Below are positions 5,610 through 32,617 of a stretch of 61,134 nt of DNA, piece by piece. Made by a program: the position numbers and the translations under genes. The stretch is from Burkholderiales bacterium (GTDB lineage: Bacteria > Pseudomonadota > Gammaproteobacteria > Burkholderiales > Burkholderiaceae_C), in assembly GCA_018971105.1 (NCBI GenBank), contig JAGWVB010000003.1, forward strand, positions 1-61,134, in the 5' to 3' direction. Below the pieces are notes generated by a model. That model searched no databases. It was not told the origin of the DNA and saw nothing but the letters and a program-made list of their open reading frames with translations. Every line of letters begins with the position of its first letter. Position 1 is the first letter of the stretch.

Positions 5610-6629
5610 TCAGCCTCCAGCGCCCGTCCGACCGCGCGTAGCCGGTGCCCTGTACGCACGAGTCCCCGTCGGGATGGCCTCCCGCAAAGCCGAGGCCAGA
5701 TGTCTCAGTACCGCGCCGGGGGGCCTGCCCGCCCGCACGGTATAGCCGACGGTGCCGAAGATGCCAATGCTGCCCAGCGGCAGGACGGCCACCAAGTTCG
5801 CGGTGAGAAATGGCTCGATGGCCGAAAGGGGCATCAGCCCGACCATCGGGCGCCGCGTCAGCAGGCCGACATTCGTAAGAATCGATACCGAGTGCACGAT
5901 GCGCCGCGGCAGCGCGAGTCCCTCCTTTTCGAACATCGCACAGGCCGTGCCGTAGGCGACCGAATCGGGCGTCGGCAGGATCCATTCCAGTTCGTGCAGG
6001 TCCTTCAGCGCGAGCTGGCGCCGGCGCCGAATGGGATGGTTGTGGGCAACGACCGCGCACAGTTCCTCGTCATAGAGCTTCACGTGCGTAAGCCGGGAGT
6101 CCTCGTCGCGTCGCGGGCTCGGACTCCGGTCGATCGGCAGGAAGCCGACGACCACGTCCAGATCGCCGCGCGCCAGGGCGGGGAACAAGGAGGCGTTCGT
6201 CCCGACGCGGATATCGACGATGACGTCCGGCGCCGCTTCGAGCAGCCGCGTGATCGCCGCCGGCAGCAGCGTCGTCGATGCGGTCAGCAGCGTGCCCACG
6301 ATCACCTGTCCCGAGGCCCCGGTATGCCACGCGTTGAGCCCGTCGGCGAGGTGCCGCAGTTCGGCGAGCATCGACTTGGCGTACGGCTCGAACTCGCGAC
6401 CGAAGTCGGTCAGCGCCACCCCCCGCTTGCCGCGCACGAACAACGCCGCTGCGAGATGGCGCTCGAGTTCGTGTATCACCTTGCTGACTGCCGGCTGGGT
6501 CATCGCCAGATCGCGCGACGCGGCAAGGATCGAACCGGCCTCGACGACCTTCTCGAAAACGGCCAGTTGCTGCAGCTTGAGCACCCGCGTGAGCGTGAGC
6601 CTGCTGTGCGGACGCACGATGTTGTTCAT
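5610..6629 (-). CDS. LysR family transcriptional regulator (GbpR/CbbR-like)
   Basis: This 339-aa protein has an N-terminal winged HTH (about residues 16-75, containing LQQLAVFEKVVEAGSILAA and AMTQPAVSKVIHELER) and a LysR substrate-binding domain (about 105-305). The GTLLTAS...LLPAAITRLL start and the DLDVVVGFLPID loop resemble GbpR/PcaQ-like regulators of sugar and aromatic catabolism. The C-terminal 25 residues are Arg/Thr/Ala rich and look like an extension beyond the fold. It reads in the same direction as the porin gene about 620 bp downstream and opposite to nothing nearby, so its target cannot be told from divergence. Confidence 0.87.
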   Translation of the reverse strand: MNNIVRPHSRLTLTRVLKLQQLAVFEKVVEAGSILAASRDLAMTQPAVSKVIHELERHLAAALFVRGKRGVALTDFGREFEPYAKSMLAELRHLADGLNAWHTGASGQVIVGTLLTASTTLLPAAITRLLEAAPDVIVDIRVGTNASLFPALARGDLDVVVGFLPIDRSPSPRRDEDSRLTHVKLYDEELCAVVAHNHPIRRRRQLALKDLHELEWILPTPDSVAYGTACAMFEKEGLALPRRIVHSVSILTNVGLLTRRPMVGLMPLSAIEPFLTANLVAVLPLGSIGIFGTVGYTVRAGRPPGAVLRHLASALREAIPTGTRAYRAPATRGRTGAGG

Positions 6630-9567: not shown

Positions 9568-9758
9568 CTATGGTTCTCCTGCGAGCTCAGCAATTGGCGC
9601 TCGATGAGACGATCGGTGTGCAGCTGCGGGGCCGGGGCGACGGCCTTCACGATGACGATGAGCAGCAGCGTCTTGACCACCAGCACGACTGCGATCTCGA
9701 GCGCCAGGCGCGGCCAGCGCGAGACCCCGCGCCAGCGGCGATCAGTGCAGCTTGACAT
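9564..9758 (-). CDS. cydP: Small membrane protein, CydP-like cytochrome oxidase subunit
   Basis: This 64-aa protein has one membrane helix ([20 protein letters not shown]) after a basic N-terminus and a polar tail (RLIERQL). Size, topology and place directly before cydA fit the putative small subunit family called CydP in beta- and gamma-proteobacteria; the assignment rests on position and topology more than on an invariant motif. It overlaps the end of the NADH dehydrogenase gene by 17 nt and the start of cydA by 4 nt. Confidence 0.75.
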
Positions 9759-11064: not shown

Positions 11065-11086
11065 CACGCTGCGTCCGCGTTTCGCA

Positions 11087-11875: not shown

Positions 11876-11893
11876 GTATGGCCTCGCCGCATG

Positions 11894-13561: not shown

Positions 13562-13603
13562 GCTGTCCCTTCGAAATCGGAACGGTGGGAAATGGAGCGG
13601 CTG

Positions 13604-14050
13604 CTACTCTCTCGCTGGTCGCGCGTGGCGCGATGTCGGCATGACGAGCGCGTCGCCCTCGATCACGACCTTGCCGGCCACGGTGCACACCGTGCCGAGC
13701 GAAACGCGGCGCTTCTCGGGCATCAGCTCCTTGACCGTCACCGTCGCGTGCACGGTGTCGCCGGGCCGCACGGGTGCCTTGAAGCGCAGGTTCTGGCTCA
13801 GGTAGATCGTGCCCGGACCGGGCAGCTTGCCGGCGATGGCCGCCGAGATCACGCTGGCGCTGAGCATGCCGTGGGCGATGCGGCCCTTGAATTGCGTGGT
13901 CCGTGCGAACTCCTCGTTGATGTGCACCGCGTTGTTGTCGCCCGAAGCCGCGGCGAACAACACGATGTCGGCCTCGCTGATGGTCTTGGCGAAGGTGGCA
14001 CTCATGCCGGGAGAGAGATCCTCGAAATCGTGACCGTTGAGTTCGTTCAT
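13604..14050 (-). CDS. MaoC-family (R)-specific enoyl-CoA hydratase (PhaJ-like)
   Basis: This 148-aa hot-dog-fold protein has the hydratase-2 motif SGDNNAVHINEEFA with the catalytic Asp and His (about residues 35-45), followed by FKGRIAHGMLSASVISA. PhaJ-like enzymes turn trans-2-enoyl-CoA into (R)-3-hydroxyacyl-CoA, the substrate of PHA synthase. Position directly upstream of phaC on the same strand supports this role. Its ATG overlaps the stop codon of the ferredoxin oxidoreductase gene (ATGA). A function in another acyl-CoA pathway cannot be excluded. Confidence 0.87.
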   Translation of the reverse strand: MNELNGHDFEDLSPGMSATFAKTISEADIVLFAAASGDNNAVHINEEFARTTQFKGRIAHGMLSASVISAAIAGKLPGPGTIYLSQNLRFKAPVRPGDTVHATVTVKELMPEKRRVSLGTVCTVAGKVVIEGDALVMPTSRHARPARE

Positions 14051-17000
14051 GCGGCAACCTTGATGGCGACGGTTTGCGGATTGCGGAAGGCGTGCAGACG
14101 TTGCTCGTACAAGGTCTTCGCTGCCGCGACACTCTTTTCCTTGACGTGGCCATAGCCGCGGATCTCGTCGGGCACGCTGGCCAGCGCCACCGCGGCGCGG
14201 TGGTTGTCGGCGCCGAGCCCGGTGATGATTTCTTCGAGCAGCTTCACGTAGTCCTCGATCAGCTGGCGCTCATGGCGGCGCTCCTCGGTCTTGCCGAAGA
14301 AGTCGAGCGCGCCGCCGCGCAGGCCCTTGAATTTCGCCAGCTGCCTGAAAGCGCCGAGCATCCAGCCTCCGAATTGCCGCTTTTGCAGTTCGCCGCTGAC
14401 CGGGTCGCGCTTGGCGAGAGAGGGCGGCGCAAGGTTGTACTTGACGGTGTAGCCATGCTTGAACTGCGCGTCGAGCTGGGCCAGGAAGGCCGGATCGCTG
14501 TGCAGCCGCGCGACCTCGTATTCGTCCTTGTAGGCCATCAGCTTGTACAGATAGCGCGCGGCGGCCTCGGTCAGGCTGCTCTTGCCGGGCACGGCCCTGT
14601 GCTCGGCGGCGAGCACCCGTTTGACGACCTGCGCATAGCGCTGGGCGTAGGCCTCGTCCTGGTAGGCGATCAGCTCGGGCACGCGAATTTCGAGCAGGCG
14701 CTTGACCTCACCTTGCGCGCCGACGGCGTCGACGATCGCACGTGCCGTGGACGAGCGCTGCGGCGTGCGCTGCATCTCGACCACCCCGCCCGGGCCCTTG
14801 GCGATCTCGGCCTGCACGTAGGCACGATCGATCACCGCCATGCGACCCCAGTTGAAAGCCGCCAACCCCATCTCGACGCCGACGCCGGCGTTCTTGATCG
14901 CGCTCATGATCGACTCGGCCCGCAGCGGGATCGTGCCGGCCTGATAGGCCACGCCGACCATGAAGGTGTTGGTGGCCATGCTGTCACCGAACAGCCCTTC
15001 CGCCAGCGCCTGGCCGTCGAGGAACACGTTGTCGGCCTTGCGCGTGACCTTCTCGATGCCGGCGATGAGGCCCGCGGTCGCCGGGAACGGGACCTGGCGA
15101 TTGGTCACCATCTGGCCGGTCGGCGACTGCGTCGTCGAGACGATCGCGATCGTCCGCGTCGGGTGGCACTTGTCGAGGTTCTTCGGGTCGGTGGCGTTGA
15201 GGATGTCGAAGCCCAGGTAGAGGTCGGCGCGGCCGTCGGAGATCTTGTTCGAGCCGTCGAACGGCTCGTGGGTGATCTTGATGTCGCTGATCACCGCGCC
15301 GCCCTTCTGCGCCAGGCCCGTCTGGTCCAGGCCGATCACCTGCTTGCCCTCGAGCCTTGCGGCGGCCGCCAGTGTCGCCGTCACGGTCACCGAGCCGGTA
15401 CCGCCGATGCCCATGATGTGCACGCCGAAGCCGAAGCTGGCGTCGACCTTGTTCACGGGCTCGGGCAGCGCGCGGTCGAGCGCGGGGATGCGACCCTTCT
15501 TCTTCTTTTTCGGCGCATCGCCGGAAGCCGGTTCGGGGTTCGGCGTGATGGTCAGGAACGACGGACAGAAGCCCTTCACGCAGGAATAATCCTTGTTGCA
15601 CGAGCTTTGATGGATGCGCGTCTTGCGGCCGAACTCGGTTTGCACCGGCTCGACGCTCATGCAATTGGACTTGACGCCGCAGTCGCCGCAGCCTTCGCAG
15701 ACGCGCTCGTTGATCACGATCACTTCGGCCGGCTCCTCGGCCTTGCCGCGGCTGCGCGCGCGGCGCAATTCGGCGGCGCATTCCTGGTCGTGCAGCAGCA
15801 CCGTCGTCCCCGGCGTGGCGGCAAGCGCGCGCTGGGCCTCGTCGAGCCGGTCGCGGTGCCAGACCTCGGTGCCGCCGCCCAGGCTCACGCCCTGGTACGC
15901 AGCGAGATCGTCGGTCGTGACGATGACCTTCTTCACGCCATTGGCCAGCAGGTCGGCCACCATCGCCGCCACCGGATGCGCGCCCATGATCTCCTGCCCG
16001 CCGGTCATCGAGGTGTGGGCGTTGCGCAGCAGCTTGAAGGTGATATTGGCGCCGGCCGACGCCGCGTACCGGATCGCCAGGCTGCCCGAATGCGCGTAGG
16101 TGCCATCGCCCATGTTCTGGAAGATGTGCTTCGTATCGGTGAAAGGCGCCATGCCGATCCACTGCGCGCCTTCGGCACCCATGTGCGTGCCCATCACGAC
16201 GTTGCGGTCCATCCACATCGCCATCGTGTGGCAACCGATGCCGGCCGAGACGATGCTGCCTTCGGGTGCCACCGTCGAGCTGTTGTGCGGGCAGCCCGAG
16301 CAGTACCAGGCCGTACGGGTCGCGGTGGGCAGCTTGCCGCGCGCATGGATCTCGTCCAGCCGCGTCAGCCAGGCCTCGGCCGATTCGACGCGCGCCTTGC
16401 GCGACAGGCGGCTGTGCAGCGCACGCCCGATGACGTCGGACTCGAACTCGCCATAGTGCGGCAGCAGTTCGCTCTCTTCCTCGTCGAACTTGCCGACGAT
16501 GCGCGGCGCATTGGCCATGCCGTAGAGCACGTTCTTGGCGAACATCTCGAGGAATGGGCGCTTCTCCTCGATGACGAAGATCTCCTCGAGCCCGCGCGCG
16601 AATTCGCGCACGATGCCCGGCTCCATCGGGAACAGCATGCCCATCTTGAGGATGCGTATGCCATGGCGCCTGAGCGCGGCGTCGTCCAGACCGAGCTCGA
16701 GGAAGGACTGGCGCAGATCGTTGTAGGTCTTGCCTGCGGTCATGATGCCCAGCCAGGCATCGGGGTTCTCGAACACGACGTTGTTGAGCTTGTTCTCTCG
16801 CGCATAGCGCTTGGCGACTTCGAGGCGGCGCGTGTACAGCGACTGCTCCATCTCAAGCGCCTGCGCTCGCACGTTCATGCCCAGATTCATGTTCGGCGTG
16901 AAGGCCTGGCCATCGAACATCAGATCGGGCGTGACGAAATCCAGCCGTGCCGGGTCGACATGTGCGGTGCCGGATCCGTCGGCGACATTGGTCACGATCT

Positions 17001-17595
17001 TCAGACCGACCCACAGCCCCGACAGTCGCGACAGGTTGTAGCCGTGCAAGCCGAGGTCGAGGATCTCCTGCACGTTGCCGGGGTACAGCGAGGGCATGCC
17101 GAGGTGGAACAGCATCGGCTCCGACTGGCTGGCCAGCGACGACGATTTGCAGCTCGGGTCGTCGCCGACCACCGCCAGCACACCGCCGTTCTTGCCGATG
17201 CCGGTGTAGTTGGCGTGCTTGAGCGCATCACCGCTGCGGTCCACCCCGGGTGCCTTGCCGTACCACAGGCCGGTGACGCCATCGAACTTCTGCTTGCCCA
17301 CGGTGTGCAGCATCTGCGTGCCCCACACCGCCGTGGCCGCGAGGTCCTCGTTGAGGCCGTCGACGAAATGGATGTGATGCTCGAGCAGCAACTTCTGCTG
17401 CTTGATCAGCGCGGCGTCGAGCATGCCGACCGGCGAGCCGCGGTAGCCCGAGACGAACATGCCGGTCTTCAGGCCGCGCCGCGCATCGGTGCGCACCTGG
17501 TCGAGCGTCAGACGCACCAGGGCGTCGATGCCGCCGAGGTGAACGACGCCTTCTTCCTTCGTAAATGCGCTGACTGCGCCTTGCTTCGATGACAT
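14047..17595 (-). CDS. Indolepyruvate:ferredoxin oxidoreductase family protein, fused
   Basis: This 1182-aa protein joins what are separate subunits in archaea. It oxidatively decarboxylates aryl- or branched 2-oxoacids to acyl-CoA with ferredoxin as acceptor. Order: pyrimidine-binding POR_N domain (about 15-230, GYRGSP); TPP-binding domain (about 430-600, SGCPHNSST and NMGDGTYAHSG); cysteine-rich [4Fe-4S] part (about 632, ERVCEGCGDCGVKSNC); gamma domain (about 725-910, HIMGIGGTGSVT and DQTGLAQKGGAV); C-terminal DUF6537-like region (about 930-1182). I chose the ATG at 17595 because MSSKQGA is followed at once by family sequence. Such enzymes usually degrade Phe, Tyr or Trp via arylpyruvates. 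Its coupling to maoC and phaC suggests the acyl-CoA products or reducing power reach storage metabolism (inference). Confidence 0.93.
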   Translation of the reverse strand: MSSKQGAVSAFTKEEGVVHLGGIDALVRLTLDQVRTDARRGLKTGMFVSGYRGSPVGMLDAALIKQQKLLLEHHIHFVDGLNEDLAATAVWGTQMLHTVGKQKFDGVTGLWYGKAPGVDRSGDALKHANYTGIGKNGGVLAVVGDDPSCKSSSLASQSEPMLFHLGMPSLYPGNVQEILDLGLHGYNLSRLSGLWVGLKIVTNVADGSGTAHVDPARLDFVTPDLMFDGQAFTPNMNLGMNVRAQALEMEQSLYTRRLEVAKRYARENKLNNVVFENPDAWLGIMTAGKTYNDLRQSFLELGLDDAALRRHGIRILKMGMLFPMEPGIVREFARGLEEIFVIEEKRPFLEMFAKNVLYGMANAPRIVGKFDEEESELLPHYGEFESDVIGRALHSRLSRKARVESAEAWLTRLDEIHARGKLPTATRTAWYCSGCPHNSSTVAPEGSIVSAGIGCHTMAMWMDRNVVMGTHMGAEGAQWIGMAPFTDTKHIFQNMGDGTYAHSGSLAIRYAASAGANITFKLLRNAHTSMTGGQEIMGAHPVAAMVADLLANGVKKVIVTTDDLAAYQGVSLGGGTEVWHRDRLDEAQRALAATPGTTVLLHDQECAAELRRARSRGKAEEPAEVIVINERVCEGCGDCGVKSNCMSVEPVQTEFGRKTRIHQSSCNKDYSCVKGFCPSFLTITPNPEPASGDAPKKKKKGRIPALDRALPEPVNKVDASFGFGVHIMGIGGTGSVTVTATLAAAARLEGKQVIGLDQTGLAQKGGAVISDIKITHEPFDGSNKISDGRADLYLGFDILNATDPKNLDKCHPTRTIAIVSTTQSPTGQMVTNRQVPFPATAGLIAGIEKVTRKADNVFLDGQALAEGLFGDSMATNTFMVGVAYQAGTIPLRAESIMSAIKNAGVGVEMGLAAFNWGRMAVIDRAYVQAEIAKGPGGVVEMQRTPQRSSTARAIVDAVGAQGEVKRLLEIRVPELIAYQDEAYAQRYAQVVKRVLAAEHRAVPGKSSLTEAAARYLYKLMAYKDEYEVARLHSDPAFLAQLDAQFKHGYTVKYNLAPPSLAKRDPVSGELQKRQFGGWMLGAFRQLAKFKGLRGGALDFFGKTEERRHERQLIEDYVKLLEEIITGLGADNHRAAVALASVPDEIRGYGHVKEKSVAAAKTLYEQRLHAFRNPQTVAIKVAA

Positions 17596-17620
17596 GAAGT
17601 GGGATCCTGTTATGGGGTCT

Positions 17621-17659
17621 CGGTCCGGGTGTCGCCTTGGTCGCCGCACGCCCGGACCG
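17621..17659. terminator. Strong hairpin between MFS gene and ferredoxin oxidoreductase gene
   Basis: Nine-base arms CGGTCCGGG and CCCGGACCG are perfectly complementary, and pairing extends inward with a G-U step. It follows the stop codon of the minus-strand MFS gene by about 20 nt and precedes the start of the oxidoreductase. There is no T-run after it, so it may be a Rho-dependent pause or transcript-stabilising hairpin rather than an intrinsic terminator. Confidence 0.5.
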
Positions 17660-19108: not shown

Positions 19109-20209
19109 TCAGAACGTATGACGTACGCCGAGGTGCAGTGCGGTCTGCTTGTCGGACGACGACGGCAGGCCGATCAACGACATCGTCAGCGGATGAAATG
19201 CCTTGTCGACGCCATGGGCCACGGTGGCATATACGTCGGTGCGCTTGGACAGCCGGTAGTCGGCCACGGCGGTCCATTGCTGGGCGCTGGCGAAACCGTT
19301 GTTTCGCTGCTGCCGCTGATAGGCCAGGCTGAACGTCATCGGGAGCGTCCAGCGGAAATTCGTCCCGAGGGTGTACGTGGTCGCCGCGTTGGGCGCCGCA
19401 GCGCTGGAAAAGCCGGCGTAGCTGGCGCGGGTGATTTCGGCGAACGGTGTCCACTGGTCGATGCTGTAGTTCGCACCGATGCCCCAGGCTCGGTTGTTCA
19501 CCATGCCGGTCGGATCGGTGGCATCGTAATAGGCCACCACGCCGTTGAATGGTCCGCGCACCAGTTGCATGCCCGCGCTCCAGGTGCTCCCGGCCTTGCC
19601 TGCGCCGGGAACCTCACCGAGGCCGTACATCACACCGAAAGTCAGCCCGCCGAAGCTCGGGCTGTCGTAGCGGATCGAATTGTTGGTGAGTACGCCCAGG
19701 GTCCGGGCACTGAGGCTCGCCGCGCTGCCCAGGATCGGCTTGCCGGTGGCCGCGTTGTTCGCCTTGGTGATGGCAGTGCCCGAGGGCAGCGTGTCACCCA
19801 TCAGCCCGGCCGGTGTCTGCCCGAGGACCGACGAGTTCACGAGCTTGAACATGAAGTCGTACTGACGGCCCAGATTCACCGTGCCGAAGCCGCCACTGAG
19901 GCCGACTGTGGCCTGACGCCCGAAGAACACACCGCCCTGCGTCACGGTGCCGGTGTCGGTATTGAACCCGTTCTCCAGGTTGAAGAGGGCACGCAGCCCG
20001 CCCCCCATATCCTCCGCGCCGCGAAAGCCCAGACGGCTGCCTTGGGCGACACCCGTGTCCATCTGCTCGGCGCGCTGCCCCCCTACGTTGTCGTAGTAGG
20101 TCACACCTGCATCGACGATGCCGTATATCGTCACGGCCGACTGCGCATGTGCCGCGGCACCCATCGTCAGGAATGCAGCGGCGAACCACCACGCGTGATC
20201 TGATTTCAT
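19109..20209 (-). CDS. General porin associated with aromatic-catabolism cluster
   Basis: This 366-aa outer-membrane porin has a signal peptide ending near residue 22 (MGAAAHAQSAVTIYGIVDAG) and the standard beta-proteobacterial start of the mature chain. Landmarks include LGFRGAEDMGGGLRALFNLE, GTVNLGRQYD and the C-terminal phenylalanine (HLGVRHTF). It sits between the decarboxylase gene and the MFS transporter on the same strand, and may be the outer-membrane entry for the aromatic substrate. GGAGAC precedes the ATG by 5 nt. Confidence 0.9.
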   Translation of the reverse strand: MKSDHAWWFAAAFLTMGAAAHAQSAVTIYGIVDAGVTYYDNVGGQRAEQMDTGVAQGSRLGFRGAEDMGGGLRALFNLENGFNTDTGTVTQGGVFFGRQATVGLSGGFGTVNLGRQYDFMFKLVNSSVLGQTPAGLMGDTLPSGTAITKANNAATGKPILGSAASLSARTLGVLTNNSIRYDSPSFGGLTFGVMYGLGEVPGAGKAGSTWSAGMQLVRGPFNGVVAYYDATDPTGMVNNRAWGIGANYSIDQWTPFAEITRASYAGFSSAAAPNAATTYTLGTNFRWTLPMTFSLAYQRQQRNNGFASAQQWTAVADYRLSKRTDVYATVAHGVDKAFHPLTMSLIGLPSSSDKQTALHLGVRHTF

Positions 20210-20274: not shown

Positions 20275-20291
20275 CGCATCTGCCTACGGAG

Positions 20292-22299
<2,008 letters not shown>

Positions 22300-22325
22300 G
22301 ATCGGGGTCTCCTGGTCCATGCGGC

Positions 22326-23291
22326 TCAGTTGTTGTAGGCGGGCGGCAGCACGGCCACGGCGCCGCCTTCACCGATGTCGAACTGCATCAGGTCGGCACC
22401 GACCACGAGCGGGCCGGCGTAGGTCTTGCGCGTCTGCGCGACGATGTCGGCGTCGCTGGGCGGCGGCGTCTTGGCATCGCCATAGCGCGCGATGTGGCTG
22501 TACACCGCCAGCTTCGGCGCGGCACGCGTGAACACCGTGCCGGCTTCCTCGGGTGACGTGTGGTGGCCGAAGATGCGCTGGAACGAGGGCGAGCGCTTGA
22601 GCAGGTCGGGATCGATCACCGCCACCTCGTGGATCAGCAGATCGGCGCCGGTCGCCTGCTTGATGACCTCCTCGGAGAACCGCGTGTCGCCTGAAATCAC
22701 GACGCTGCGGCCCTTGTACTGGATCTTGTAGCCCACCGCCGGTTTGATGTCCTCGCCGTGGTCCACGACGAACGCACTCACCTTGACGCCGTCGCGCTCG
22801 TAGAGGACGGCCGGCGCTTTGAATTCGTGGACGTCGAAGGCGACCCCCTGGGGCGGGTTGTGCTCGTCGGCGATGCGGATCTTGATGTCGTCGGCATAGG
22901 CCTGCTCCAGGCCTTCGGCGAGCTTGCGCACGCCGGTCGGGCCGTAGAGCACGAAGGGCGTCTTGCGTCCGCCGTAATTGGGTTGCAGCCAGCCAGTCAA
23001 CCAGAGGTCGGGCAATCCGACGGTGTGGTCGGAGTGGTAGTGCGTGAGGAAGTGAGCATTGATGCTGCCCAGCGGGATCTTCAGCTGCCACAGGCGGATC
23101 GTGACGCCGCGGCCGATGTCGAACACCAGCCGCTGCGAACCCGCCTCGACCAGCGTGCTCTGGCTGTAGCGGTCGGGCCGCGGGTTGGGAACACCCGAGC
23201 CGAGCAGGCTGACCTTGAAGTCACCGGCCCAGACCAGCGACGAAGATAGAGCCAGCGCGGCAGCCCCGAGGCGGATGAGTCTTCCGATCAT
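22326..23291 (-). CDS. Exported MBL-fold metallohydrolase (RNase Z/AtsA-like)
   Basis: This 321-aa metallo-beta-lactamase-fold protein has a Sec signal peptide ([15 protein letters not shown], cleavage before GDF), so the mature enzyme should be periplasmic. Metal-binding motifs are complete: [13 protein letters not shown] (HxHxDH), a later His after the GDTRFSEE aspartate, and [10 protein letters not shown]. The fold is closest to RNase Z-like and arylsulfatase AtsA-like exported hydrolases. It lies between nbaF and nbaG in the 3-HAA operon, spaced 26 nt from the deaminase start and 41 nt from nbaG, so it is surely co-transcribed; yet all other pathway enzymes are cytoplasmic. Substrate unknown; an ester, amide or lactone precursor released in the periplasm is one idea. 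Confidence 0.87.
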
Positions 23292-23332
23292 GTTGTCTCC
23301 TGTTGGATTGGCGGATAAGCGCGGCCGAGGGT

Positions 23333-24106
23333 TCAGCGCGTGGTGAAAGCGACGCATCCCAGCGCCCCATGGCCGCTGCCGATGCGGCACTGCACGTGCA
23401 GCCCCGGCGTCAACGCAACGGCCGCGGTGGCGCCGCCGGCCATGACCAGCGAACCGGCGGGCAGGCTCATCTGTGCAGCGTGCAGCAGGTGCGAGGCCTG
23501 CACCACCGAGCGCAGCGGCTGGCCGAGGATGGCGCCGGTGGAGCCGACGAGCACGTCGCGGCCGTCGAACTGCACCCGCACGCCGGCGTTGGCGAGACCA
23601 TCGAATTTGCGCGACCAGGCGCCGACCACGAGGCCGGCCGACGAGCAGTTGTCGGCCACCACGCCTTCGAGGCTGAACTTGAAATTGCGATAGCGCGAGT
23701 CGATGATCTCCATCGCCGGCGCCACGGCCTCGAGGTAGTCGGCGGCTTCGAGCGACGTCAGCGGCGCATCGATGACGCGTCGCGTGACGAAGCAGACCTC
23801 CGGCTCGACCCGCGGGTGGATGTAGCGGGCCAGATCAACGCTGCCGCCATCCTCCTCGAGCATGCCGTCCGTCAGCAGGCCCCAGATCAGGCTGTCGACG
23901 CCCATCTGGACCATCTTGGCGCGGCTCGTGAAACCGAGCTTGATGCCCTTGTGGCGCTCGCCGCGTTCGATCCTGCGCTGGATCGATGCACGTTGGATCT
24001 CGTAGGCCTGCGCCAGCGTGAAATGGCCGGCCGGGAATTGATCGATCTCGCGGTGCTCGCGCGCCGCGTCGTCGAGAAGTGCCGCCGCTTCGTGGATGAT
24101 GCTCAT
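23333..24106 (-). CDS. nbaG: 4-Oxalocrotonate decarboxylase
   Basis: This 257-aa member of the fumarylacetoacetase-like hydratase/decarboxylase family converts 4-oxalocrotonate to 2-oxopent-4-enoate. Family motifs: GIKLGFTSRAKMVQMGVDS, then HPRVEPEVCFV with the metal-binding Glu residues, and the SRYRNFKFSLEGVVADNCSS segment that is characteristic of decarboxylases rather than hydratases. The start at 24106 gives MSIIHEAAALLDDA. It follows the hydratase gene on the same strand, and in the meta-pathway these two proteins form a complex. Confidence 0.9.
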   Translation of the reverse strand: MSIIHEAAALLDDAAREHREIDQFPAGHFTLAQAYEIQRASIQRRIERGERHKGIKLGFTSRAKMVQMGVDSLIWGLLTDGMLEEDGGSVDLARYIHPRVEPEVCFVTRRVIDAPLTSLEAADYLEAVAPAMEIIDSRYRNFKFSLEGVVADNCSSAGLVVGAWSRKFDGLANAGVRVQFDGRDVLVGSTGAILGQPLRSVVQASHLLHAAQMSLPAGSLVMAGGATAAVALTPGLHVQCRIGSGHGALGCVAFTTR

Positions 24107-24141
24107 GCGGGTATGTCCTGATCGTCGAATGCTTGGGCTCG

Positions 24142-24939
24142 TCAGCGGCCGAACAGCGCGCTGACCGAGCCGAGACCTTCGATATGGGCCGTGAACACAT
24201 CGCCGGGCTGGGCCACGACCATCGGCCCGAGGGCGCCGGTCATCAGCACATCGCCGGCACGCAAGGGCGTGCCCATGCGCACCAGCACATCGGCGAGCCA
24301 GACGGCGGCATTGAGCGGGTTGCCCAGGCAGGCGGCGCCGCCGCCGACGGAGACCTGGTCGCCGCGCCGCTCCATCACCATGCCGCAATCGGCCAGATCG
24401 AGCCGCGACAGCGCCACCGGCCGCGTGCCCAGCACGAACAGGCTCGACGAGGCGTTGTCGGCCACCGTATCGGCGAGGCGGATGTCCCAATTGGCAATGC
24501 GGCTGCCCACGATCTCGATCGCCGGCAGCGCATAGGCCGTGGCCGAGATCAGATCGGCCACGGTATGGCGCCCATGCGGCAGATCGCGTTCGAGCACGAG
24601 CGCGATCTCGGCCTCGGCCTTGGGCTGCATCAGGCGCGACCAGGCAATCTCCTCGCCGTCACCGACGGCCATGTCGGCGAACAGCGCGCCGAAGTCGGGC
24701 GAATCGACGCCGAGCTGCTTCTGCACCGCCTTCGAGGTCAGGCCGATCTTGCGACCGACGAGGCGCCCGCCGGCATCGATGCGGCGCTGGCTGATCAGCT
24801 GCTGCACCTGGTAGGCGGCAGCCATCACGTCACCGCCGATCGCCGCGGCCTCGATCTCGTCGCGCACCGGCGCGATCGGCTCGCCGCTGGCTGCGGCCTG
24901 CCACAGCCGGTCGGCAATGGGCTGGACACGTTGATTCAA
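24142..24939 (-). CDS. nbaH: 2-Oxopent-4-enoate (2-keto-4-pentenoate) hydratase
   Basis: This 265-aa enzyme hydrates 2-hydroxypenta-2,4-dienoate to 4-hydroxy-2-oxovalerate. It resembles Mhp[49 protein letters not shown] with metal ligands, and [21 protein letters not shown] favour the TTG start at 24939, since GAGGAG stands 7 nt upstream and the protein then matches the MhpD N-terminus; an ATG at 24960 overlapping the preceding gene's stop is the alternative and adds seven residues. Its product normally goes to an aldolase and acetaldehyde dehydrogenase, both absent here. Confidence 0.9.
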
Positions 24940-24956
24940 AGTCGCTCTCCTCAGGA

Positions 24957-25367
24957 TCATGACAAGGCGGTTCCCGCCTGGTGAAAACAGAACTCGATCT
25001 CCACCAGCGCCCCGAGCGGCAAGGCGCTCACGCCGACCGCGGTACGCGCCGGCGGATCGATGCGCGCGAACTGGCGCTCCCAGACCTCGTTGAAATCGGC
25101 GAAGCGATCGAAGCGCGTCGTGTAGACGCGCGCCGCACACAGTTGCTCGAGCGAGAACCCGTAGTCGGGCAGCGCGAGCATCAGGTTGTCGAAGATGCGC
25201 TGCGTCTGTTCGGCCACGCCGCCGTCGACCAGGGCGCCGGTGGCTGGATCGAGCGCGACCATGCCCGAGACGAAGCCGAACGCCCCGCTCCGCACGCAGG
25301 GTGTGTAGCGGAAATGCGGCGCGGCCAGGCGCTTCGAGGTGAGCAGTTCGCGCACGTCGGGCCTCAA
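24957..25367 (-). CDS. RidA family protein (second in the cluster)
   Basis: This 136-aa YjgF/RidA-fold protein has the fold's core ([17 protein letters not shown]), the substrate-carboxylate Arg in [15 protein letters not shown] and the Glu in [11 protein letters not shown]. It differs clearly from the NbaF-like protein of the same operon. It could be a second deaminase, or a damage-control hydrolase that removes reactive enamine or imine intermediates made from 2-aminomuconic semialdehyde. Its start overlaps the stop of the dehydrogenase gene by 4 nt, so the two are translationally coupled. It sits where I recall the unassigned nbaX in the Pseudomonas KU-7 nba cluster. Confidence 0.82.
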
Positions 25368-26848
25368 AGCTTGATGCAGATGTTGGTCGTCTCGGAATAG
25401 AAGTCGAGCGAGTAGCGCCCGCCTTCGCGGCCCAGGCCCGACAACTTGGTGCCGCCGAAAGGCGTGCGCAGGTCACGCAGGTACCAGGTGTTGACCCAGA
25501 CGATGCCGGTGTGGAAGCGCCGCGCAACGCGGTGGGCGCGCGACAGGTTCGTGGTCCAGATCGTCCCGGCCAGGCCATACACCGAGTCGTTGGCCCGGCG
25601 TAGGGCCTCCTCTTCGGTGTCGAACGGCGTGATATGGCAGACCGGGCCGAACACCTCTTCGCGCACGCAGCGCGCGTCGTCCGACAGGCCGGTCCAGATC
25701 GTCGGCTGGATGAAGGCGCCGTTGTCGCGCTCGTCACCGAAGGTCGGCACGCCGCCGCCGGTGACCAGGGTCGCGCCTTCCTCGAGCGCGAGCTTGTAGT
25801 ACGAGAGCACCTTGGCCCGATGCTTGTGCGAAATCAACGAACCCATGTCGACGCCGGGATCGTCGGGCCAACCGATCTTGAGCTTCTCGGTGCGCTTTTT
25901 CATCTCCGCGACGAAGCGCTCGAAGATCGGACGCTCGACGTAGACGCGCTCGGAACACAGGCAAACCTGCCCGGTGTTGGTGAACGAGGAGCGGACCACA
26001 CCGTCGACGGCTGCATCGAAGTCGCAATCGGCAAAGACGATGGCCGCGTTCTTGCCGCCCAACTCGAAGGAAACCTCCTTCATGCCGTCGGCCACGGCCT
26101 TCATGATGGTCGAGCCGGTGCGCGATTCGCCGGTGAAGGTGATGGCGTCGATGCCGGGGTTCTTCGTCATCGCCTCGCCGGCCGAATTGGCGCCGAAACC
26201 GTGCACGAGGTTGAACACGCCCGGTGGCACGCCGGCTTCGTGGAAGGCCTCGGCCAGCAGCGTCGCCGACGACGGCGTCTCCTCGGAAGGCTTGACGACC
26301 ATCGTGTTGCCGCAGATCAGCGCCGGCCCCGCCTTCCAGGTCATCGACAGCAACGGCAGGTTCCACGGCGAGATGCTGGCAACCACACCGAGCGGCTTGC
26401 GCACGGTGTAGTTCATCAGGTTGTCGCCGCCGGCGGTGCGGGTCTCGAAATAGTCGCCATGCGCGTTCTTACCGAGATCGGCGAAGGTGCGCAGGTTCAA
26501 GATGCCGCGGAACACATCGAGCTTCTTCGCCTGCTCCACTGGCCTGCCGGTGTCGCCGACTTCGGCCGCGACGAACTCGTCGAAGCGCCGTTCGATGACA
26601 TCGGCCACGCGATGCATCATCGCCGCGCGCTCGTCCACACTCATGCCGCCCCAGGGTCCCGCAAGCGCCTTGCGCGCGGCCTGCACGGCGCGGTCGACCA
26701 GCGCCGCATCGGCCTCGTGCACCTGCGCCAGCACCCGGCCATCCAAAGGGCTGACATTGTCGAAGCGCTTGTCGGTCGAGACGAACTCGCCATCGACGTA
26801 ATTGCGCAGTGAGCCCAGGGTGGGCGGCAGGGCGAAGCGACCGGGCAT
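25364..26848 (-). CDS. nbaE: 2-Aminomuconic (or 2-hydroxymuconic) semialdehyde dehydrogenase
   Basis: This 494-aa NAD-dependent aldehyde dehydrogenase oxidises 2-aminomuconic semialdehyde to 2-aminomuconate. ALDH motifs are complete: the general base Glu in [11 protein letters not shown], the nucleophile Cys in [12 protein letters not shown] and [33 protein letters not shown] lines the cofactor site. I take the ATG at 26848 ([13 protein letters not shown] 9 nt upstream); the open frame continues upstream without coding character. It is the first gene of the catabolic operon and lies 55 nt after a clear inverted repeat, so it marks the promoter-proximal end. Confidence 0.92.
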
Positions 26849-27312: not shown

Positions 27313-28497
27313 TCAGGCCCAGCCCGCGCGCAGCCTCTCGATCGCTTCAGTCACCGTGGCGCGCGGACAGCCGATGTTGGCGCGCATGAAGCCGGCGCCT
27401 TCCGCGCCGAATTTCGTTCCCTGATCGAACCAGACCCGGCATTTCGTCAGCAGATGGTCTTCGAGCGCAGCGGGGTTCATGCCCGTTCCGCGGCAGTCGA
27501 TCCACGCCAGGTAGAGCGAGTCCATCTCGATCACCCGCAGCCCGACCCCGAGCGCGAGGACGCCGGCGGCGAAATGGCGCTGGTTGGATGCGACGTGGCG
27601 CACGAGTCCGTCGACCCAATCGGCGCCATGCCGGTAGGCGGCCTCGGTGGCCACCATGCCCAGCAGGTTGACGCGGCTGACCTGGTTGCGATCGATCCGC
27701 CGCGCGAACGCCTGCCGCAGCCGCTGGTTCGGGATGATGGCGTTGGCACATTGCAGGCCCGCCAGGTTGAAGGTCTTGCTCGCCGAAACGCAGGTCACGC
27801 TGGCATCGGCGAATGCCGGGGACAGCGACGCGAAAGGTATGTGGCGTCGGTCCTTCGCCAGCACGAAGTCCTGGTGGATCTCGTCGGCCAGGACGAGCAC
27901 GCCGCGGCGCAGGCAGATCTCGCCCATCGTGCGCAGTTCGGCCTCCGACCAGACGTTGCCGGTCGGGTTGTGCGGGTTCGACAGGATGAAGATCCTCGTG
28001 TCGTCGCCCAGGGCACGTTCGAAGGCCTGCGCGTCGAAGCGGTAGCGCATGCCGTCGAAGGCCAGCGGCGCGGCGCTGACGCAGCGTCCGTTGATCAGCG
28101 GGTCGTTGTGGAAATGGACGTAGACCGGCGTCTGGATCAGCACCGTGTCGCCCGGCGACGAGAACGCCTGGATGACGGTCTTCAGCGCGGTGATGACACC
28201 CGAGACGGGGACGACCCAGGCCGGATCGACGCTCCAGCCGAACCGACGTGCCTGCCAGCCGGTGACCGCGGCCAAGTAGGTGGGCGTGGCGCCCAGCGCG
28301 TAGCCGAAGACACCGTCGGCCACCGCGTCCTGCAGCGCCTGCAGCACCGGCTCGGGCGCGCGGAAGTCCATGTCGGCAAGCCACATCGGCAATGGATCGG
28401 CCGCGGCCTGCGCCGGGCTCAGCAGCAGGCTCGCGCCGGCCCACTTGAGGGAATTGCTGTCCCGGCGGTCGACCGGCGTCTCGAAGTCGAAGCTCAT
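27313..28497 (-). CDS. PatB/MalY-like PLP-dependent aminotransferase or C-S lyase
   Basis: This 394-aa fold-type I PLP enzyme resembles PatB/MalY cystathionine beta-lyases. Motifs: PMWLADMDFRAPEPVLQAL near the N-terminus, SNPHNPTGNVWSEAEL, VLADEIHQDF (PLP-ring Asp) and the Schiff-base Lys in CVSASKTFNLAGLQ. The ATG at 28497 with GGGGA upstream is preferred; a TTG at 28560 overlapping the ABC ATPase stop would add 21 residues without family resemblance. Joint operon with the AapQMP transporter suggests it acts on an imported amino acid, possibly a cystathionine-like or S-substituted cysteine. A plain aminotransferase role cannot be excluded. Confidence 0.87.
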   Translation of the reverse strand: MSFDFETPVDRRDSNSLKWAGASLLLSPAQAAADPLPMWLADMDFRAPEPVLQALQDAVADGVFGYALGATPTYLAAVTGWQARRFGWSVDPAWVVPVSGVITALKTVIQAFSSPGDTVLIQTPVYVHFHNDPLINGRCVSAAPLAFDGMRYRFDAQAFERALGDDTRIFILSNPHNPTGNVWSEAELRTMGEICLRRGVLVLADEIHQDFVLAKDRRHIPFASLSPAFADASVTCVSASKTFNLAGLQCANAIIPNQRLRQAFARRIDRNQVSRVNLLGMVATEAAYRHGADWVDGLVRHVASNQRHFAAGVLALGVGLRVIEMDSLYLAWIDCRGTGMNPAALEDHLLTKCRVWFDQGTKFGAEGAGFMRANIGCPRATVTEAIERLRAGWA

Positions 28498-28556
28498 GTA
28501 TTTCCCCGGGTCTCGGTGCCCGATGGAGTGGAGGTCGGCGCCGGCGGCTGGCGAGG

Positions 28557-29293
<737 letters not shown>

Positions 29294-29297
<4 letters not shown>

Positions 29298-30403
29298 TCG
29301 CGTCGGGTCCCGGTGAATAGATGGGCTTCGAGCCAGCGGCTGTAGTGCGACATCGCGAAGCAGGCGATGAAATAGATCGCCGCCACGAAGAGCTGGCCCT
29401 CGAGGAAGAAGCGGCGCCAGTCGGCGTCACCCAGCGCCAGCTGCACGGCGCCGGTGAGGTCGTACAGGCTCACGATGGTGACGAGCGAGGTGTCCTTGAA
29501 GGCGCCGATGAAGGTGTTGACGATCGCCGGGACCGACAGTCGCAACGCCTGCGGCAGGACGATCTTGCGCTGCGTCTGCCAGTAGCCCAGGCCCAGCGAC
29601 TGTGCCGCCTCGACCTGGCCCTTGGGCACCGCCTGCAAGCCGCCGCGCAAGGTCTCGGCGAGGTAGGCGGTCACGAACAGCGTCATGCCGACGAGCACGC
29701 GCACGACCACGTCGATGGTGCTGCCCGTCGGCATGAACAGCGGCAGGATGAACGAGGCCATGAAGAGCACCGTGATCAGCGGCACCCCGCGCACGAGCTC
29801 GACATAGACGGTGCACAAGGTGCGGATCGCCGGCAGTTGCGAGCGCCGGCCGAGTGCGACCAGTACCGCGAGCGGAAAGGCGATGACGAGGCTCACGGTC
29901 GCGAGCAGCAGCGTCAGCGGCAGGCCGCCCCAGAGGTCGGTGCCGACCTCCTCGAGCCCGAAATACCCGCCGCGCATGAGCACGTAGCAGGCGCCGACGA
30001 CGATCACCCAGGCTGCCACCAGCGCCGGTCGCCAGCACGCCCGCATGCTGCTCGCCACCAGCAGCACGACGAGCAGCGCGCTCGCGAGCAGGGCCCGCCA
30101 CTGGTCTTCGTAAGGGTAGCGGCCGAAGAGGATGAGGCGGCCCTTCTCGGCCACCACGCCCCAGCAGGCGCCGTGGCCATGTGCCGCCCTGCAGGCGGCG
30201 TTGTCGGCGGTGGGCACGGCGTACAGCACGGCCCAGTCGAACAGCGGCGGCAGCACGATCACGAGCAGGGCGATGACGGCCAGGGTCAGCAGGCCGCTGG
30301 CCCAGTTGGGGAAGAGCTTCCTCTGGACCCAGGCCAGCGCTCCCAGGCGCGAGCGCGGCGCGGCGCGCGCGGCGATGGGCACGAACGTGTCGGCGGCTTC
30401 CAT
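29294..30403 (-). CDS. aapM: General L-amino acid ABC transporter permease AapM
   Basis: This 369-aa permease has the long N-terminal extension that marks AapM: a first helix (LLTLAVIALLVIVLPPLFDW), a periplasmic loop with two Cys (ADNAACRAAHGHGACWG), then two or three further helices before the His/Glu-type permease domain (about 150-365). The EAA-like loop is EAAQSLGLGYWQTQRKIVLP. It begins in a TGATG overlap with the aapQ stop and overlaps aapP. Together the genes form an aapJ-Q-M-P operon of the Rhizobium type that takes up a broad range of L-amino acids. Confidence 0.93.
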
Positions 30404-31578
30404 CAGCGCTCCTTCAGGCGCGCGCGCCGGTTGTACCAGCCCATCAGCGCGCTCGTGAGCAGCGACAGCATGAGGTAGATGGCCATCACGATCGTGATGC
30501 ATTCGACGGCGCGTCCGGTCTGGTTCAGCGAGGTCTCGCTGATCGAGACCAGGTCGGGGTATCCCACCGCGACCGCGAGCGACGAGTTCTTGGTCAGGTT
30601 CAGATACTGGTTGGTGAGCGGCGGGATGATCACGCGCAGCGCCTGCGGCAACTGCACCAGCCGCAGCGAGAGCGCGCGCGAGAGGCCGAGCGCCGAGGCC
30701 GCCTCGATCTGACCGAACGCGACCGACTGTATGCCTCCGCGCACCACCTCGGAGATGAAGCCGGCCGTGTAAATCGTCAGGCCCAGCAGCACCGTGAGGT
30801 ACTCGGGCGTGACCGCGCCGCCGCCGTTGATCGCAATCTGGCTGCGCACGGGCACGTCCAGCGCGGTCGGCGCACCGTCGGCCCACCAGCCAGCGAGGCC
30901 GCCCAGCACCCAGAGCGCGATGACGGGCAGCGCCAGCGGCAGCGCCCGGCCAGTGGCTTCGCGCCGCGCCCGCGCGAAGCGCAGCCAGCCCCAGGAAGCC
31001 GGGATGCCCAGCAAGAACCCGATGCCGGTATAGAAGTGGCTCGCGCTCTCGTCGGGCAGCGGAAACTGCAGCCCCGCCTTGCTGAGGAAGACATGCGGCA
31101 GCGGCTGCAGGGCGCCATCCATCGAAGGCAGGAACTCGGTGATGGCGAAGTACCACATGAAGAGCTGCAGCAGCAGCGGCACGTTGCGCGTCGCCTCGAC
31201 GTAGGCGCGGCACAGCCCGCGCACGAGCGGATTGCGCGAAAGCCGGCCGACACCGACCATGAGCCCGATCGCGGTTGCCAGGACGATGCCCACGAGCGAC
31301 ACGCGCAGCGTGTTCGACAAGCCGACGAGGAAGGCCTTGGCATAGCTGTCGGACGAATCGAAGGGGATCAGGCTCTCGCCGATCGCGAAGCCGGCCGGCT
31401 GGGTGATGAAGTCGAAGCCGCTCTGGATGCCGCGCGCCCGCATGTTGGCGAGCGTGTTGTGGGCCAGGTAGCCGATGGCCGCCGCCAGCAGGGCGACGGC
31501 CAGCACCTGGTAGACCACGCCGCGCAGCGCCTGGCTGCGCCAGGACCAGCGGCGTTGCTTCGGTGGAAGAACGGCCAT
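30403..31578 (-). CDS. aapQ: General L-amino acid ABC transporter permease AapQ
   Basis: This 391-aa inner-membrane permease has an N-terminal helix (VYQVLAVALLAAAIGYLA), a loop with NMRARGIQSGFDFI that is conserved in AapQ, a large central insertion (about 165-250) and then the C-terminal part of the permease domain with EAASALGLSRALSLRLVQLP and NLTKNSSLAVAVGYPDLV. It lies 10 nt downstream of aapJ and shares one base with the aapM start. It forms a heterodimer with AapM. Confidence 0.93.
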   Translation of the reverse strand: MAVLPPKQRRWSWRSQALRGVVYQVLAVALLAAAIGYLAHNTLANMRARGIQSGFDFITQPAGFAIGESLIPFDSSDSYAKAFLVGLSNTLRVSLVGIVLATAIGLMVGVGRLSRNPLVRGLCRAYVEATRNVPLLLQLFMWYFAITEFLPSMDGALQPLPHVFLSKAGLQFPLPDESASHFYTGIGFLLGIPASWGWLRFARARREATGRALPLALPVIALWVLGGLAGWWADGAPTALDVPVRSQIAINGGGAVTPEYLTVLLGLTIYTAGFISEVVRGGIQSVAFGQIEAASALGLSRALSLRLVQLPQALRVIIPPLTNQYLNLTKNSSLAVAVGYPDLVSISETSLNQTGRAVECITIVMAIYLMLSLLTSALMGWYNRRARLKER

Positions 31579-31588
31579 GACCGGCGGA

Positions 31589-32617
31589 TCAGCGGATCGG
31601 CGGCGCGTACATGATGCCGCCCTGGTTCCACAGCCGGTTGAGCCCGCGCGGCAGCTTGAGCGTCGAATGCTCGCCCAGGTTGCGGTCGAAGATCTCGCCG
31701 TAGTTGCCCTCGGCCTTGATGGCGCGGTAGGCCCAGTCCTTGTCCAGTCCGAGCAGCTTGCCCATGTCCTCGCCGCTGCCGAGGATGCGCTGCACCGCGG
31801 GGTTGTCGCTCTTGGCCTTCATCTCGTCGACGTTGGCCTGGGTGATGCCGTACTCCTCGGCATTGACGAGGGCGTAGAAGGTCCACTTGACGATCGCGAA
31901 GAACTCGTCGTCGCCGCGCCGCACCGCGGGGCCGAGCGGCTCCTTGGAGATCAACTCGGGCAGGATGACGTGGTCCGCCGGATTCGTGGCGTCCTTGCTG
32001 CGAATCGAAGCCAGCGCCGAAGAGTCGGTCGTGTAGGCCTGGCAGCGACCCGCGAAGTAAGCCTTGTTGGCGGCTTCCTGGGTGTCGAAGACGACCGGCT
32101 TCAGGTTGAGCTGGGCCTGCTTGGAGAAGTCGCTGAGGTTCTTCTCGGTCGTCGTGCCCGACTGCACGCACACGGTGGCCCCTTTCAGCTGCTTGGCGCT
32201 CGTGACCTTGAGCTTCTTGGGCACCATGAAGCCCTGGCCGTCGTAGAACGAGATGCCGGTGAAGTTCAGCCCGAGCGACGCGTCGCGCGTAAGCGTCCAA
32301 GTGGTGTTGCGCGAGAGCAGGTCGACCTCGCCCGACTGGATCACCGCGAAGCGTTGCGCGGCCTCGATCGGCACCCACTTGACCTTGTTGGCATCGCCCA
32401 GGATGGCGGCGGCGATCGCGCGGCAAACGTCGACATCGAGCCCGCTCCAGTGGCCCTGGCTGTCGGCGACGGCAAAGCCCGGCAGGCTGGGGTTGACGCC
32501 GCAGTTCAGCTCGCCGCGCTGCTTGATCGCGTCCAGGGTCTTGCCGGCATATGCGGGCAGCGCAGCGGACAGGGCCAGCGCCGCGACGGCGGCGATTCGG
32601 ATCGAGTTCTTTCTCAC
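31589..32617 (-). CDS. aapJ: Amino acid ABC transporter substrate-binding protein
   Basis: This 342-aa periplasmic binding protein has a signal peptide ending at ALPAYA, then GKTLDAIKQRGELNCGVNPS as in AapJ. SBP_bac_3 features follow: GLDVDVCRAIAAAILGD, NTTWTLTRDASLGLNFTGIS and DNPAVQRILGSGEDMGKLLG. The start is a GTG at 32617 with GAGAGG 6 nt upstream; the nearby ATG is out of frame and meets a stop at once. It is first in the aapJQMP-patB operon. Confidence 0.94.
   Translation of the reverse strand: MRKNSIRIAAVAALALSAALPAYAGKTLDAIKQRGELNCGVNPSLPGFAVADSQGHWSGLDVDVCRAIAAAILGDANKVKWVPIEAAQRFAVIQSGEVDLLSRNTTWTLTRDASLGLNFTGISFYDGQGFMVPKKLKVTSAKQLKGATVCVQSGTTTEKNLSDFSKQAQLNLKPVVFDTQEAANKAYFAGRCQAYTTDSSALASIRSKDATNPADHVILPELISKEPLGPAVRRGDDEFFAIVKWTFYALVNAEEYGITQANVDEMKAKSDNPAVQRILGSGEDMGKLLGLDKDWAYRAIKAEGNYGEIFDRNLGEHSTLKLPRGLNRLWNQGGIMYAPPIR

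What the first reader, a model, noticed from the sequence alone, without database searches (positions are those of the whole stretch)
22326..23291. Exported MBL-fold hydrolase embedded in a cytoplasmic aromatic-degradation operon
The protein has a complete HxHxDH metal site and a clear Sec signal peptide, yet lies in the middle of a run of cytosolic pathway genes with short gaps. A periplasmic step is not part of the known 3-HAA pathway. It could release the aromatic from an ester, amide or conjugate, detoxify a lactone by-product or cleave a phenoxazinone-type oxidation product of 3-hydroxyanthranilate. This is the best candidate here for an undescribed biochemical activity.
Basis: partly seen in the sequence, partly recalled or inferred. 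Interest (0 to 1): 0.7.

Follow-up and report, generated by a model that had tools for sequence, protein, structure and literature searches.

The report
Exported hydrolase in 3-hydroxyanthranilate operon
A bacterial operon that breaks down the aromatic acid 3-hydroxyanthranilate also carries a zinc-type hydrolase that is probably sent outside the inner membrane, where it may free the acid or a relative from a larger precursor; its substrate is unknown.

Summary
Window 22326-23291 (minus) encodes a 321-aa metallo-beta-lactamase-fold protein with a complete metal site and a Sec-like leader, behind a good ribosome-binding site, in a tight operon of 3-hydroxyanthranilate (3-HAA) genes. A porin and an aromatic-acid symporter gene follow closely, so the run is not purely cytosolic.

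The protein lies in an RNase Z/PNGM-1/S4-arylsulfatase-like branch but reaches the cut-off of none of the 15 NCBIfam models it hits. The same genome has a second 3-HAA operon without it, so the core route does not need it. The wider family is rarely beside 3-HAA genes (3 of 80 loci). Its closest clade is: Polaromonas (73% identity) at the same operon junction, Oligella (63-66%) about 5 kb away. A distant homologue (45-47%) sits between kynureninase and a flavoprotein monooxygenase in an Acidobacteriota kynurenine operon, a separate second linkage.

Best explanation: a periplasmic accessory hydrolase that releases 3-HAA, or a close relative, from an ester- or sulfate-type conjugate or ring-closed precursor before uptake. 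The linkage is shown; export is predicted; substrate and reaction are inferred, without biochemical evidence.

The parts
22326..23291 (-). Metallo-beta-lactamase-fold hydrolase with export leader, 321 aa, HYHSDH at residues 84-89, leader about residues 1-22
25364..26848 (-). 2-aminomuconate (2-hydroxymuconic) semialdehyde dehydrogenase; longest ORF runs to 27058, ATG at 26848 chosen by homology
   Evidence: TIGR03216 849 bits against cut-off 693
24957..25367 (-). RidA-family protein 1 (candidate 2-aminomuconate deaminase)
   Evidence: TIGR00004, below its cut-off; 61% to Polaromonas L053
24142..24939 (-). 2-oxopent-4-enoate hydratase family; start TTG 24939 behind AGGAGA, or ATG 24960
   Evidence: NF008461, 332 against cut-off 350 bits
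23333..24106 (-). 2-oxo-3-hexenedioate decarboxylase family, ends 41 bp before the MBL start
   Evidence: 69% to L053. The family scan used the longer ORF 23333-24490 and stayed below cut-off
21877..22320 (-). RidA-family protein 2, starts 5 bp after the MBL stop
21290..21859 (-). 3-hydroxyanthranilate 3,4-dioxygenase (HAO)
   Evidence: TIGR03037 and NF009763 above cut-off
20292..21293 (-). ACMSD-type amidohydrolase, overlaps the HAO stop by 4 bp
   Evidence: PF04909; 68% to L053 ACMSD; start read
19109..20209 (-). Gram-negative porin, 82 bp after ACMSD
   Evidence: PF13609 193.5 bits
17681..19039 (-). MFS transporter of the aromatic acid/H+ symport group (PcaK-like), 69 bp after the porin
   Evidence: NF053517 470 bits, TIGR00895 386 bits, both below cut-off
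5610..6629 (-). LysR regulator, 55% identical to the one at the head of the Polaromonas cluster; possible regulator of this operon

Best explanation
An accessory, periplasmic, dinuclear-metal hydrolase of the RNase Z/PNGM-1/S4-arylsulfatase branch. It cuts an exogenous conjugate or ring-closed precursor (aryl ester, most plausibly O-sulfate or carboxylic ester; less likely a lactone or cyclic carbamate) and so releases 3-hydroxyanthranilate or a close o-aminophenol-carboxylate or kynurenine relative. The substrate would enter through the operon's porin and the freed acid would be taken up by the PcaK-like symporter. HAO, ACMSD, AMSDH, RidA, decarboxylase and hydratase then degrade it. Shown: gene, metal-site residues, fold class (by model), operon position, shared synteny with Polaromonas, absence from the genome's other 3-HAA operon. 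Predicted: export. Inferred: co-transcription with porin and MFS, substrate class, reaction, direction of flow.
For: Tight operon position. Same decarboxylase|MBL junction in Polaromonas, there with a 4-bp overlap, followed by a PF00884 sulfatase, kynureninase, a TctC receptor, RidA2, an alanine-racemase-family protein, HAO and ACMSD. The window gene and its two closest named homologues are all within 6 kb of HAO and form one supported clade. A second, phylogenetically separate case inside an Acidobacteriota operon HAO-ACMSD-kynureninase-MBL-flavoprotein monooxygenase-cyclase family. Chance expectation of HAO within 10 kb in 80 loci is about 0.03; 3 seen. The paralogous 3-HAA operon of the same genome lacks the gene. 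The genome has TDO, kynureninase and a cyclase on another contig and no hit to the one KMO query tried, so 3-HAA is probably not made here from tryptophan. Metal ligands and the PNGM-1 H257 equivalent (H244, 42 of 44) are conserved. Twenty residues shared by the three clade members and found in at most 4 of the other 41 homologues, among them R269-Y270 just after metal ligand H266, fit a changed pocket that could bind an acid.
Against: No substrate or activity evidence. The clade with the linkage has only three members. In Oligella the gene is about 5 kb away on the opposite strand, outside the operon. In the family of the Acidobacteriota genome only 1 of 7 homologue-bearing genomes (of 80 searched) shows the kynurenine linkage. 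13 of 87 loci show no leader by a simple rule, eight of them clearly, so export is not constant in the family. Family contexts are diverse. The KMO negative has no positive control.
Confidence: 0.5

Rival explanations
1. Detoxification: the periplasmic enzyme destroys a toxic by-product of o-aminophenols, such as a phenoxazinone or lactone, and makes no growth substrate.
For: MBL-fold enzymes are known that act in o-aminophenol chemistry: BxdA acts on MBOA, and deletion of Fusarium MBL1 abolishes BOA breakdown (passages read). 3-HAA autoxidises (recalled).
Against: The second 3-HAA operon in the same genome has no such gene. In the order sample 25 of 399 genomes have HAO; 5 of the 25 also have the MBL at 1e-50, and only in 2 (G000, G470) are they on one contig.
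Confidence: 0.12
2. Passenger: a general exported hydrolase with an unrelated substrate that was carried into the operon by chance and spread with it.
For: Only 3 of 80 homologue loci are near HAO; family contexts are diverse; the linked clade has three members.
Against: Tight position in the operon in two genera, retained metal site, and a separate second linkage to kynurenine genes in another phylum. Expected by chance: about 0.03 loci.
Confidence: 0.2
3. It acts at the kynurenine level (kynurenine, 3-hydroxykynurenine or xanthurenate conjugates, or N-acyl forms) rather than on 3-HAA conjugates.
For: In the Acidobacteriota operon kynureninase is directly beside the MBL, and in Polaromonas one gene away.
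Against: No kynureninase was found in the window's genome other than the one beside TDO on another contig. Oligella's 20-kb loci showed none in the tblastn.
Confidence: 0.15
4. A ribonuclease Z or nucleic-acid phosphodiesterase.
For: NCBIfam RNase Z models and RNase Z structures match; the HHT motif is retained.
Against: Scores far below the curated cut-offs (142 against 363, 106 against 293 bits); a leader; operon context.
Confidence: 0.03

Closest known systems
PNGM-1 (RNase Z-like metallo-beta-lactamase, PDB 6j4n)
   Same: Best hit by sequence (2.4e-26) and by fold (Foldseek 1.9e-26, TM 0.81 by query length); metal ligands and the H257 equivalent are kept.
   Different: 27% identity; sits in a 3-HAA operon; no evidence that it opens beta-lactams.
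S4 arylsulfohydrolases (AtsA of Pseudoalteromonas carrageenovora; P. atlantica arylsulfatase 8gyg)
   Same: ElaC-related branch of the MBL superfamily (passages of PMC5066984); 8gyg aligns over nearly the whole length. That 8gyg is an S4 member is my reading.
   Different: 23-24% identity to 8gyg; the paper's criterion for this group is at least 30% to AtsA, which was not compared directly.
GntH (NCBIfam NF041257)
   Same: Best NCBIfam hit, 176.5 bits over residues 23-306.
   Different: Cut-off 333 bits not reached; different gene context; no paper found.
BxdA and Fusarium MBL1 (benzoxazolinone-degrading MBL enzymes)
   Same: MBL-type enzymes whose action yields an o-aminophenol (passages).
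   Different: Annotated as AHL-lactonase family or class B type; no AHL-lactonase model among the 15 NCBIfam hits here; no direct comparison made; export not mentioned in the passages seen.
3-HAA lower pathway (onb cluster for 2-nitrobenzoate, Cupriavidus sp. ST-14)
   Same: Dioxygenase, decarboxylase, dehydrogenase and deaminase of the same route (passages of PMC5817917).
   Different: The word hydrolase does not occur in that paper's main text; onbX1-X3 are not described in the passages seen. Here an MBL and a porin/MFS pair are added.

Membership tests
Ribonuclease Z | Curated NCBIfam model score (NF000806, TIGR02651) | tested here: not met
   142.3 against 363 and 106.2 against 292.95 bits
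Ribonuclease Z | HxHxDH plus H, D, H ligands and the HxT loop (feature recalled) | tested here: met
   H84 H86 D88 H89 H178 D202 H266, H244-T245
Ribonuclease Z | Cytosolic protein without export leader (recalled) | tested here: inconclusive
   A leader-like N-terminus is present, but no predictor was run
S4 arylsulfohydrolase | HxHxDH and ElaC-like fold | tested here: met
S4 arylsulfohydrolase | At least 30% identity to AtsA (criterion in PMC5066984) | tested here: inconclusive
   Only 23-24% to 8gyg; AtsA itself was not compared
S4 arylsulfohydrolase | Hydrolysis of aryl sulfates | not testable with these tools
   Needs an assay
GntH (NF041257) | Curated score 333 bits | tested here: not met
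   176.5 bits
PNGM-1-like metallo-beta-lactamase | Metal ligands and substrate-binding His of PNGM-1 | tested here: met
   residue names from PDB titles (chain index plus one)
PNGM-1-like metallo-beta-lactamase | Beta-lactam hydrolysis | not testable with these tools
   Needs an assay
Core 3-HAA catabolic operon component | Present wherever the core 3-HAA operon is present | tested here: not met
   Absent from the second 3-HAA operon of the same genome; no MBL at the cut-off used in 22 of 26 HAO-bearing genomes of the family sample and 20 of 25 of the order sample
Accessory 3-HAA/kynurenine gene (3-HAA clade of the MBL) | Closest homologues beside HAO genes | tested here: met
   3 of 3 members at 63% identity or more, the window included; Oligella's outside the operon

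The most novel reading that the evidence does not exclude
A dedicated periplasmic entry step of kynurenine/3-hydroxyanthranilate catabolism that arose at least twice (Burkholderiales and Acidobacteriota): an exported RNase Z-branch metallohydrolase that removes a sulfate or other ester from excreted aromatic tryptophan metabolites, or opens a cyclic precursor, so that bacteria can feed on conjugates that the known pathway cannot use.
Probability: 0.2. Interest if true: 0.65.

Novelty: new variant of a known kind. Interest (0 to 1): 0.42.

Why it matters
If right, it adds an upper step outside the cytoplasm to a well-known aromatic pathway and gives a substrate class to a metallohydrolase family that is usually named only 'MBL fold metallo-hydrolase' (24 of 27 plasmid records). 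The same genome carries a matched operon without the gene, so the question can be put to a simple test.

Tried and rejected
Viral contigs: no relative. Literature, all in an open-licence library: '3-hydroxyanthranilate' with 'metallo-beta-lactamase' and 'gene cluster' gave 1 paper, on a Pseudomonas genome (listing only); 'kynurenine' with 'MBL fold' and 'bacteria' gave 0; guanitoxin/GntH 0; periplasmic MBL and aromatic degradation, 15 of 50 listed, nothing on point by title; 3-hydroxyanthranilic acid and periplasmic, 8 of 180 listed, none of the 8 holding that compound's name. Those searches found no description of this gene. Other listings.

The first ACMSD query (20284-21135) was in a wrong frame and gave a misleading 42% identity; the true ACMSD is 20292-21293 and 68% identical to L053. 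In one search the reference 20295-21299 was not the true gene start and gave no family hit at 1e-20.

A first leader count (70 of 82) misjudged some loci, L063 for one; it is replaced: 74 of 87 leader-like, 13 not. Of the 13, eight have only 4-8 residues before the core (L055, L056, L058, L066, L067, L071, L075, L113; L056 is near a contig end) and five are unclear (L057, L089, L108, L127, L138).

Idea that TctC receptors are general partners: 15 of 73 operonic neighbours against 5 of 100 distal genes carry TctC (Fisher p 0.003), but 5 of the 13 TctC-linked loci have leaderless MBLs and relatives are not independent; a stricter local count gave only 4 of 87 loci with TctC within 400 bp on the same strand. 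I do not lean on it. The 73 were picked by hand from 100 operonic neighbours of 80 of 87 loci (32 of the 80 had none); the 100 controls were drawn at random from 307 genes of at least 120 aa in 41 loci.

Idea of a shared sulfatase partner: seen mostly with a different MBL group (35-38% identity), not relied on. Genome co-occurrence of HAO and MBL (order sample 5 of 10 MBL genomes against 25 of 399 overall, Fisher p 0.0001; family sample 4 of 13 against 26 of 299, p 0.02) is confounded by lineage and lifestyle.

Full report
What is there. The minus strand of 22326-23291 is a 321-aa open frame whose ATG follows AGGAGA at a normal distance. Pfam places it in Lactamase_B_2 (2.7e-15, 56.9 bits against a cut-off of 27). 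The N-terminus [27 protein letters not shown] reads as a Sec leader; this is by eye, as no predictor was available. AlphaFold with an alignment of 44 sequences gives mean pLDDT 92.7, with low values at the leader and the last residues.

Operon. On the minus strand the order is AMSDH, RidA1, hydratase, decarboxylase, MBL, RidA2, HAO, ACMSD, porin, MFS, IFOR, with gaps of -4, 17, 35, 41, 5, 17, -4, 82, 69 and 31 bp (families). The AMSDH and HAO models pass their NCBIfam cut-offs; the Rid, hydratase, decarboxylase and MFS assignments are best hits below cut-off. Because a porin and a PcaK-like aromatic-acid symporter follow, the run itself offers a route outer membrane - periplasm - cytosol. That route, and co-transcription with the porin and MFS, are my inference.

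Same genome, second operon. The window's genome (4.82 Mb, 499 contigs) has two HAO genes. The second, on contig C252 (L152), lies in AMSDH, hydratase, acylating aldehyde dehydrogenase, aldolase, decarboxylase, RidA2, HAO, ACMSD, with decarboxylase and RidA2 directly adjacent and no MBL (the two extra enzymes named through their L053 homologues). The MBL is therefore not needed for 3-HAA breakdown as such. Tryptophan 2,3-dioxygenase, kynureninase and a cyclase-family gene are on a third contig, C289; a kynurenine-monooxygenase-like query from the Acidobacteriota locus found nothing (the tool warns that this empty answer has no positive control). So the window operon is more likely fed by something taken up.

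Conservation. Same family: the MBL (E at most 1e-20) is in 13 of 299 genomes, HAO (E at most 1e-20) in 26 of 299; of 12 homologue loci other than the window's none has HAO within the 6 to 20 kb held. Family of Oligella: 9 of 250 at 1e-60; genus of Polaromonas sp. OV174: 4 of 87, the other three at 52-53%; family of the Acidobacteriota genome: 7 of 80. The neighbourhoods fetched for further matches (26 MBL loci, several duplicates of named contigs; not every match was fetched, the three new ones not at all) showed no HAO or kynureninase at E at most 1e-12. Some of the 80 are cut short by contig ends. Expected by chance about 0.03, from 26/299 genomes and 20 kb in 4.5 Mb.

The linked loci. L053: LysR, AMSDH, RidA1, hydratase, acetaldehyde dehydrogenase, DmpG-type aldolase, decarboxylase, MBL (4-bp overlap, 73% identity), PF00884 sulfatase, kynureninase, TctC receptor, RidA2, an alanine-racemase-family protein with a leader-like N-terminus, HAO, ACMSD, periplasmic binding protein, alpha/beta hydrolase. 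L054: the 3-HAA operon, then a TRAP transporter (DctP, DctM) and a glutathione-transferase-family gene, then the MBL on the other strand, about 5 kb from HAO. L131: HAO, ACMSD, kynureninase, MBL (overlapping its end), a flavoprotein monooxygenase that I take for KMO, a cyclase-family gene; two other short open frames lie between, one on the opposite strand. In a tree of 44 homologues the window, Polaromonas and Oligella proteins form one clade (95/91) and L131 lies elsewhere; two changes of the label are needed.

What kind of enzyme. Closest solved proteins by sequence and fold are PNGM-1, then RNase Z and an arylsulfatase of the same branch. All metal ligands are retained, with H244 matching PNGM-1 H257. 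No NCBIfam cut-off is reached (15 hits). The three clade members share 20 residues found in at most 4 of the other 41 homologues, among them S43-Q44 and R269-Y270, the latter three and four residues after metal ligand H266; that these line the pocket is inference from sequence. By a hydrophobicity rule 74 of 87 loci carry a leader; 13 do not, eight of them clearly, mostly Bradyrhizobium and Xanthobacteraceae loci.

Wider contexts. Plasmid homologues (27 records, at most 55% identity; 7 looked at) lie in clusters with a BKACE and a cyclase-family gene (two Alphaproteobacteria), in a hydroxylase/FAH/VOC/BKACE cluster (Peribacillus), about 3 kb from a gallate-type dioxygenase on the other strand (Sphingobium pPDL2), about 3 kb from protocatechuate 3,4-dioxygenase genes across a transposase (Paracoccus), and in two contexts with no evident catabolic link (Leisingera, Roseateles). 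The Peribacillus set recurs in G176, with a weak VOC match. The family thus looks like an accessory hydrolase recruited to various catabolic clusters.

Mechanism. I take the most likely one to be metal-activated water attacking an ester-type bond of an exogenous precursor in the periplasm, then uptake and ring cleavage. Sulfate or carboxylic esters are put first because of the fold branch and the sulfatase next to the Polaromonas gene; ring-closed precursors are kept open because other MBL enzymes, BxdA and Fusarium MBL1, make o-aminophenols that way (passages read). None of this is tested.

Limits. Three linked clade members only; export unproved; substrate unknown; gene calls in relatives are from a simple ORF rule; named-genome scan truncated.

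Noticed in passing
window 20292-26848 and G000 contig C252 (L152 4398-11568): The genome carries two distinct 3-HAA operons; the C252 one has the acylating aldehyde dehydrogenase and aldolase that the window operon lacks, so the two may share lower-pathway enzymes.
   Followed up: partly
L017-L024: In 8 of 12 same-family loci, those with an MBL of 35-38% identity, a sulfatase-like gene (27-32% to the Polaromonas sulfatase) lies within about 3 kb of the MBL; Polaromonas L053 has one directly downstream.
   Followed up: no
L016 (G176) and L139 (Peribacillus asahii plasmid): A shared set of MhpA-like hydroxylase, FAH, VOC protein (weak match), BKACE and MBL in a Burkholderiales genome and a Bacillota plasmid, FAH and VOC in swapped order: possibly an undescribed aromatic route.
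   Followed up: no
L055, L056, L058, L066, L067, L071, L075: Members of the same MBL family without leader peptides, several with a TctC receptor gene close upstream: localisation changes within the family.
   Followed up: partly
L053 15236-16474: An alanine-racemase-family protein with a signal-like N-terminus between RidA2 and HAO in Polaromonas; might act on D-amino acids such as D-kynurenine.
   Followed up: no
window 27313-32617: Just upstream of the operon: polar amino-acid ABC transporter genes and a PatB-family C-S lyase (above its cut-off).
   Followed up: no
window 6849-17649: Cytochrome bd oxidase genes, a pyridine-nucleotide oxidoreductase, enoyl-CoA hydratase, PHA synthase, MaoC-type dehydratase and a fused indolepyruvate ferredoxin oxidoreductase follow on the same strand.
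   Followed up: no
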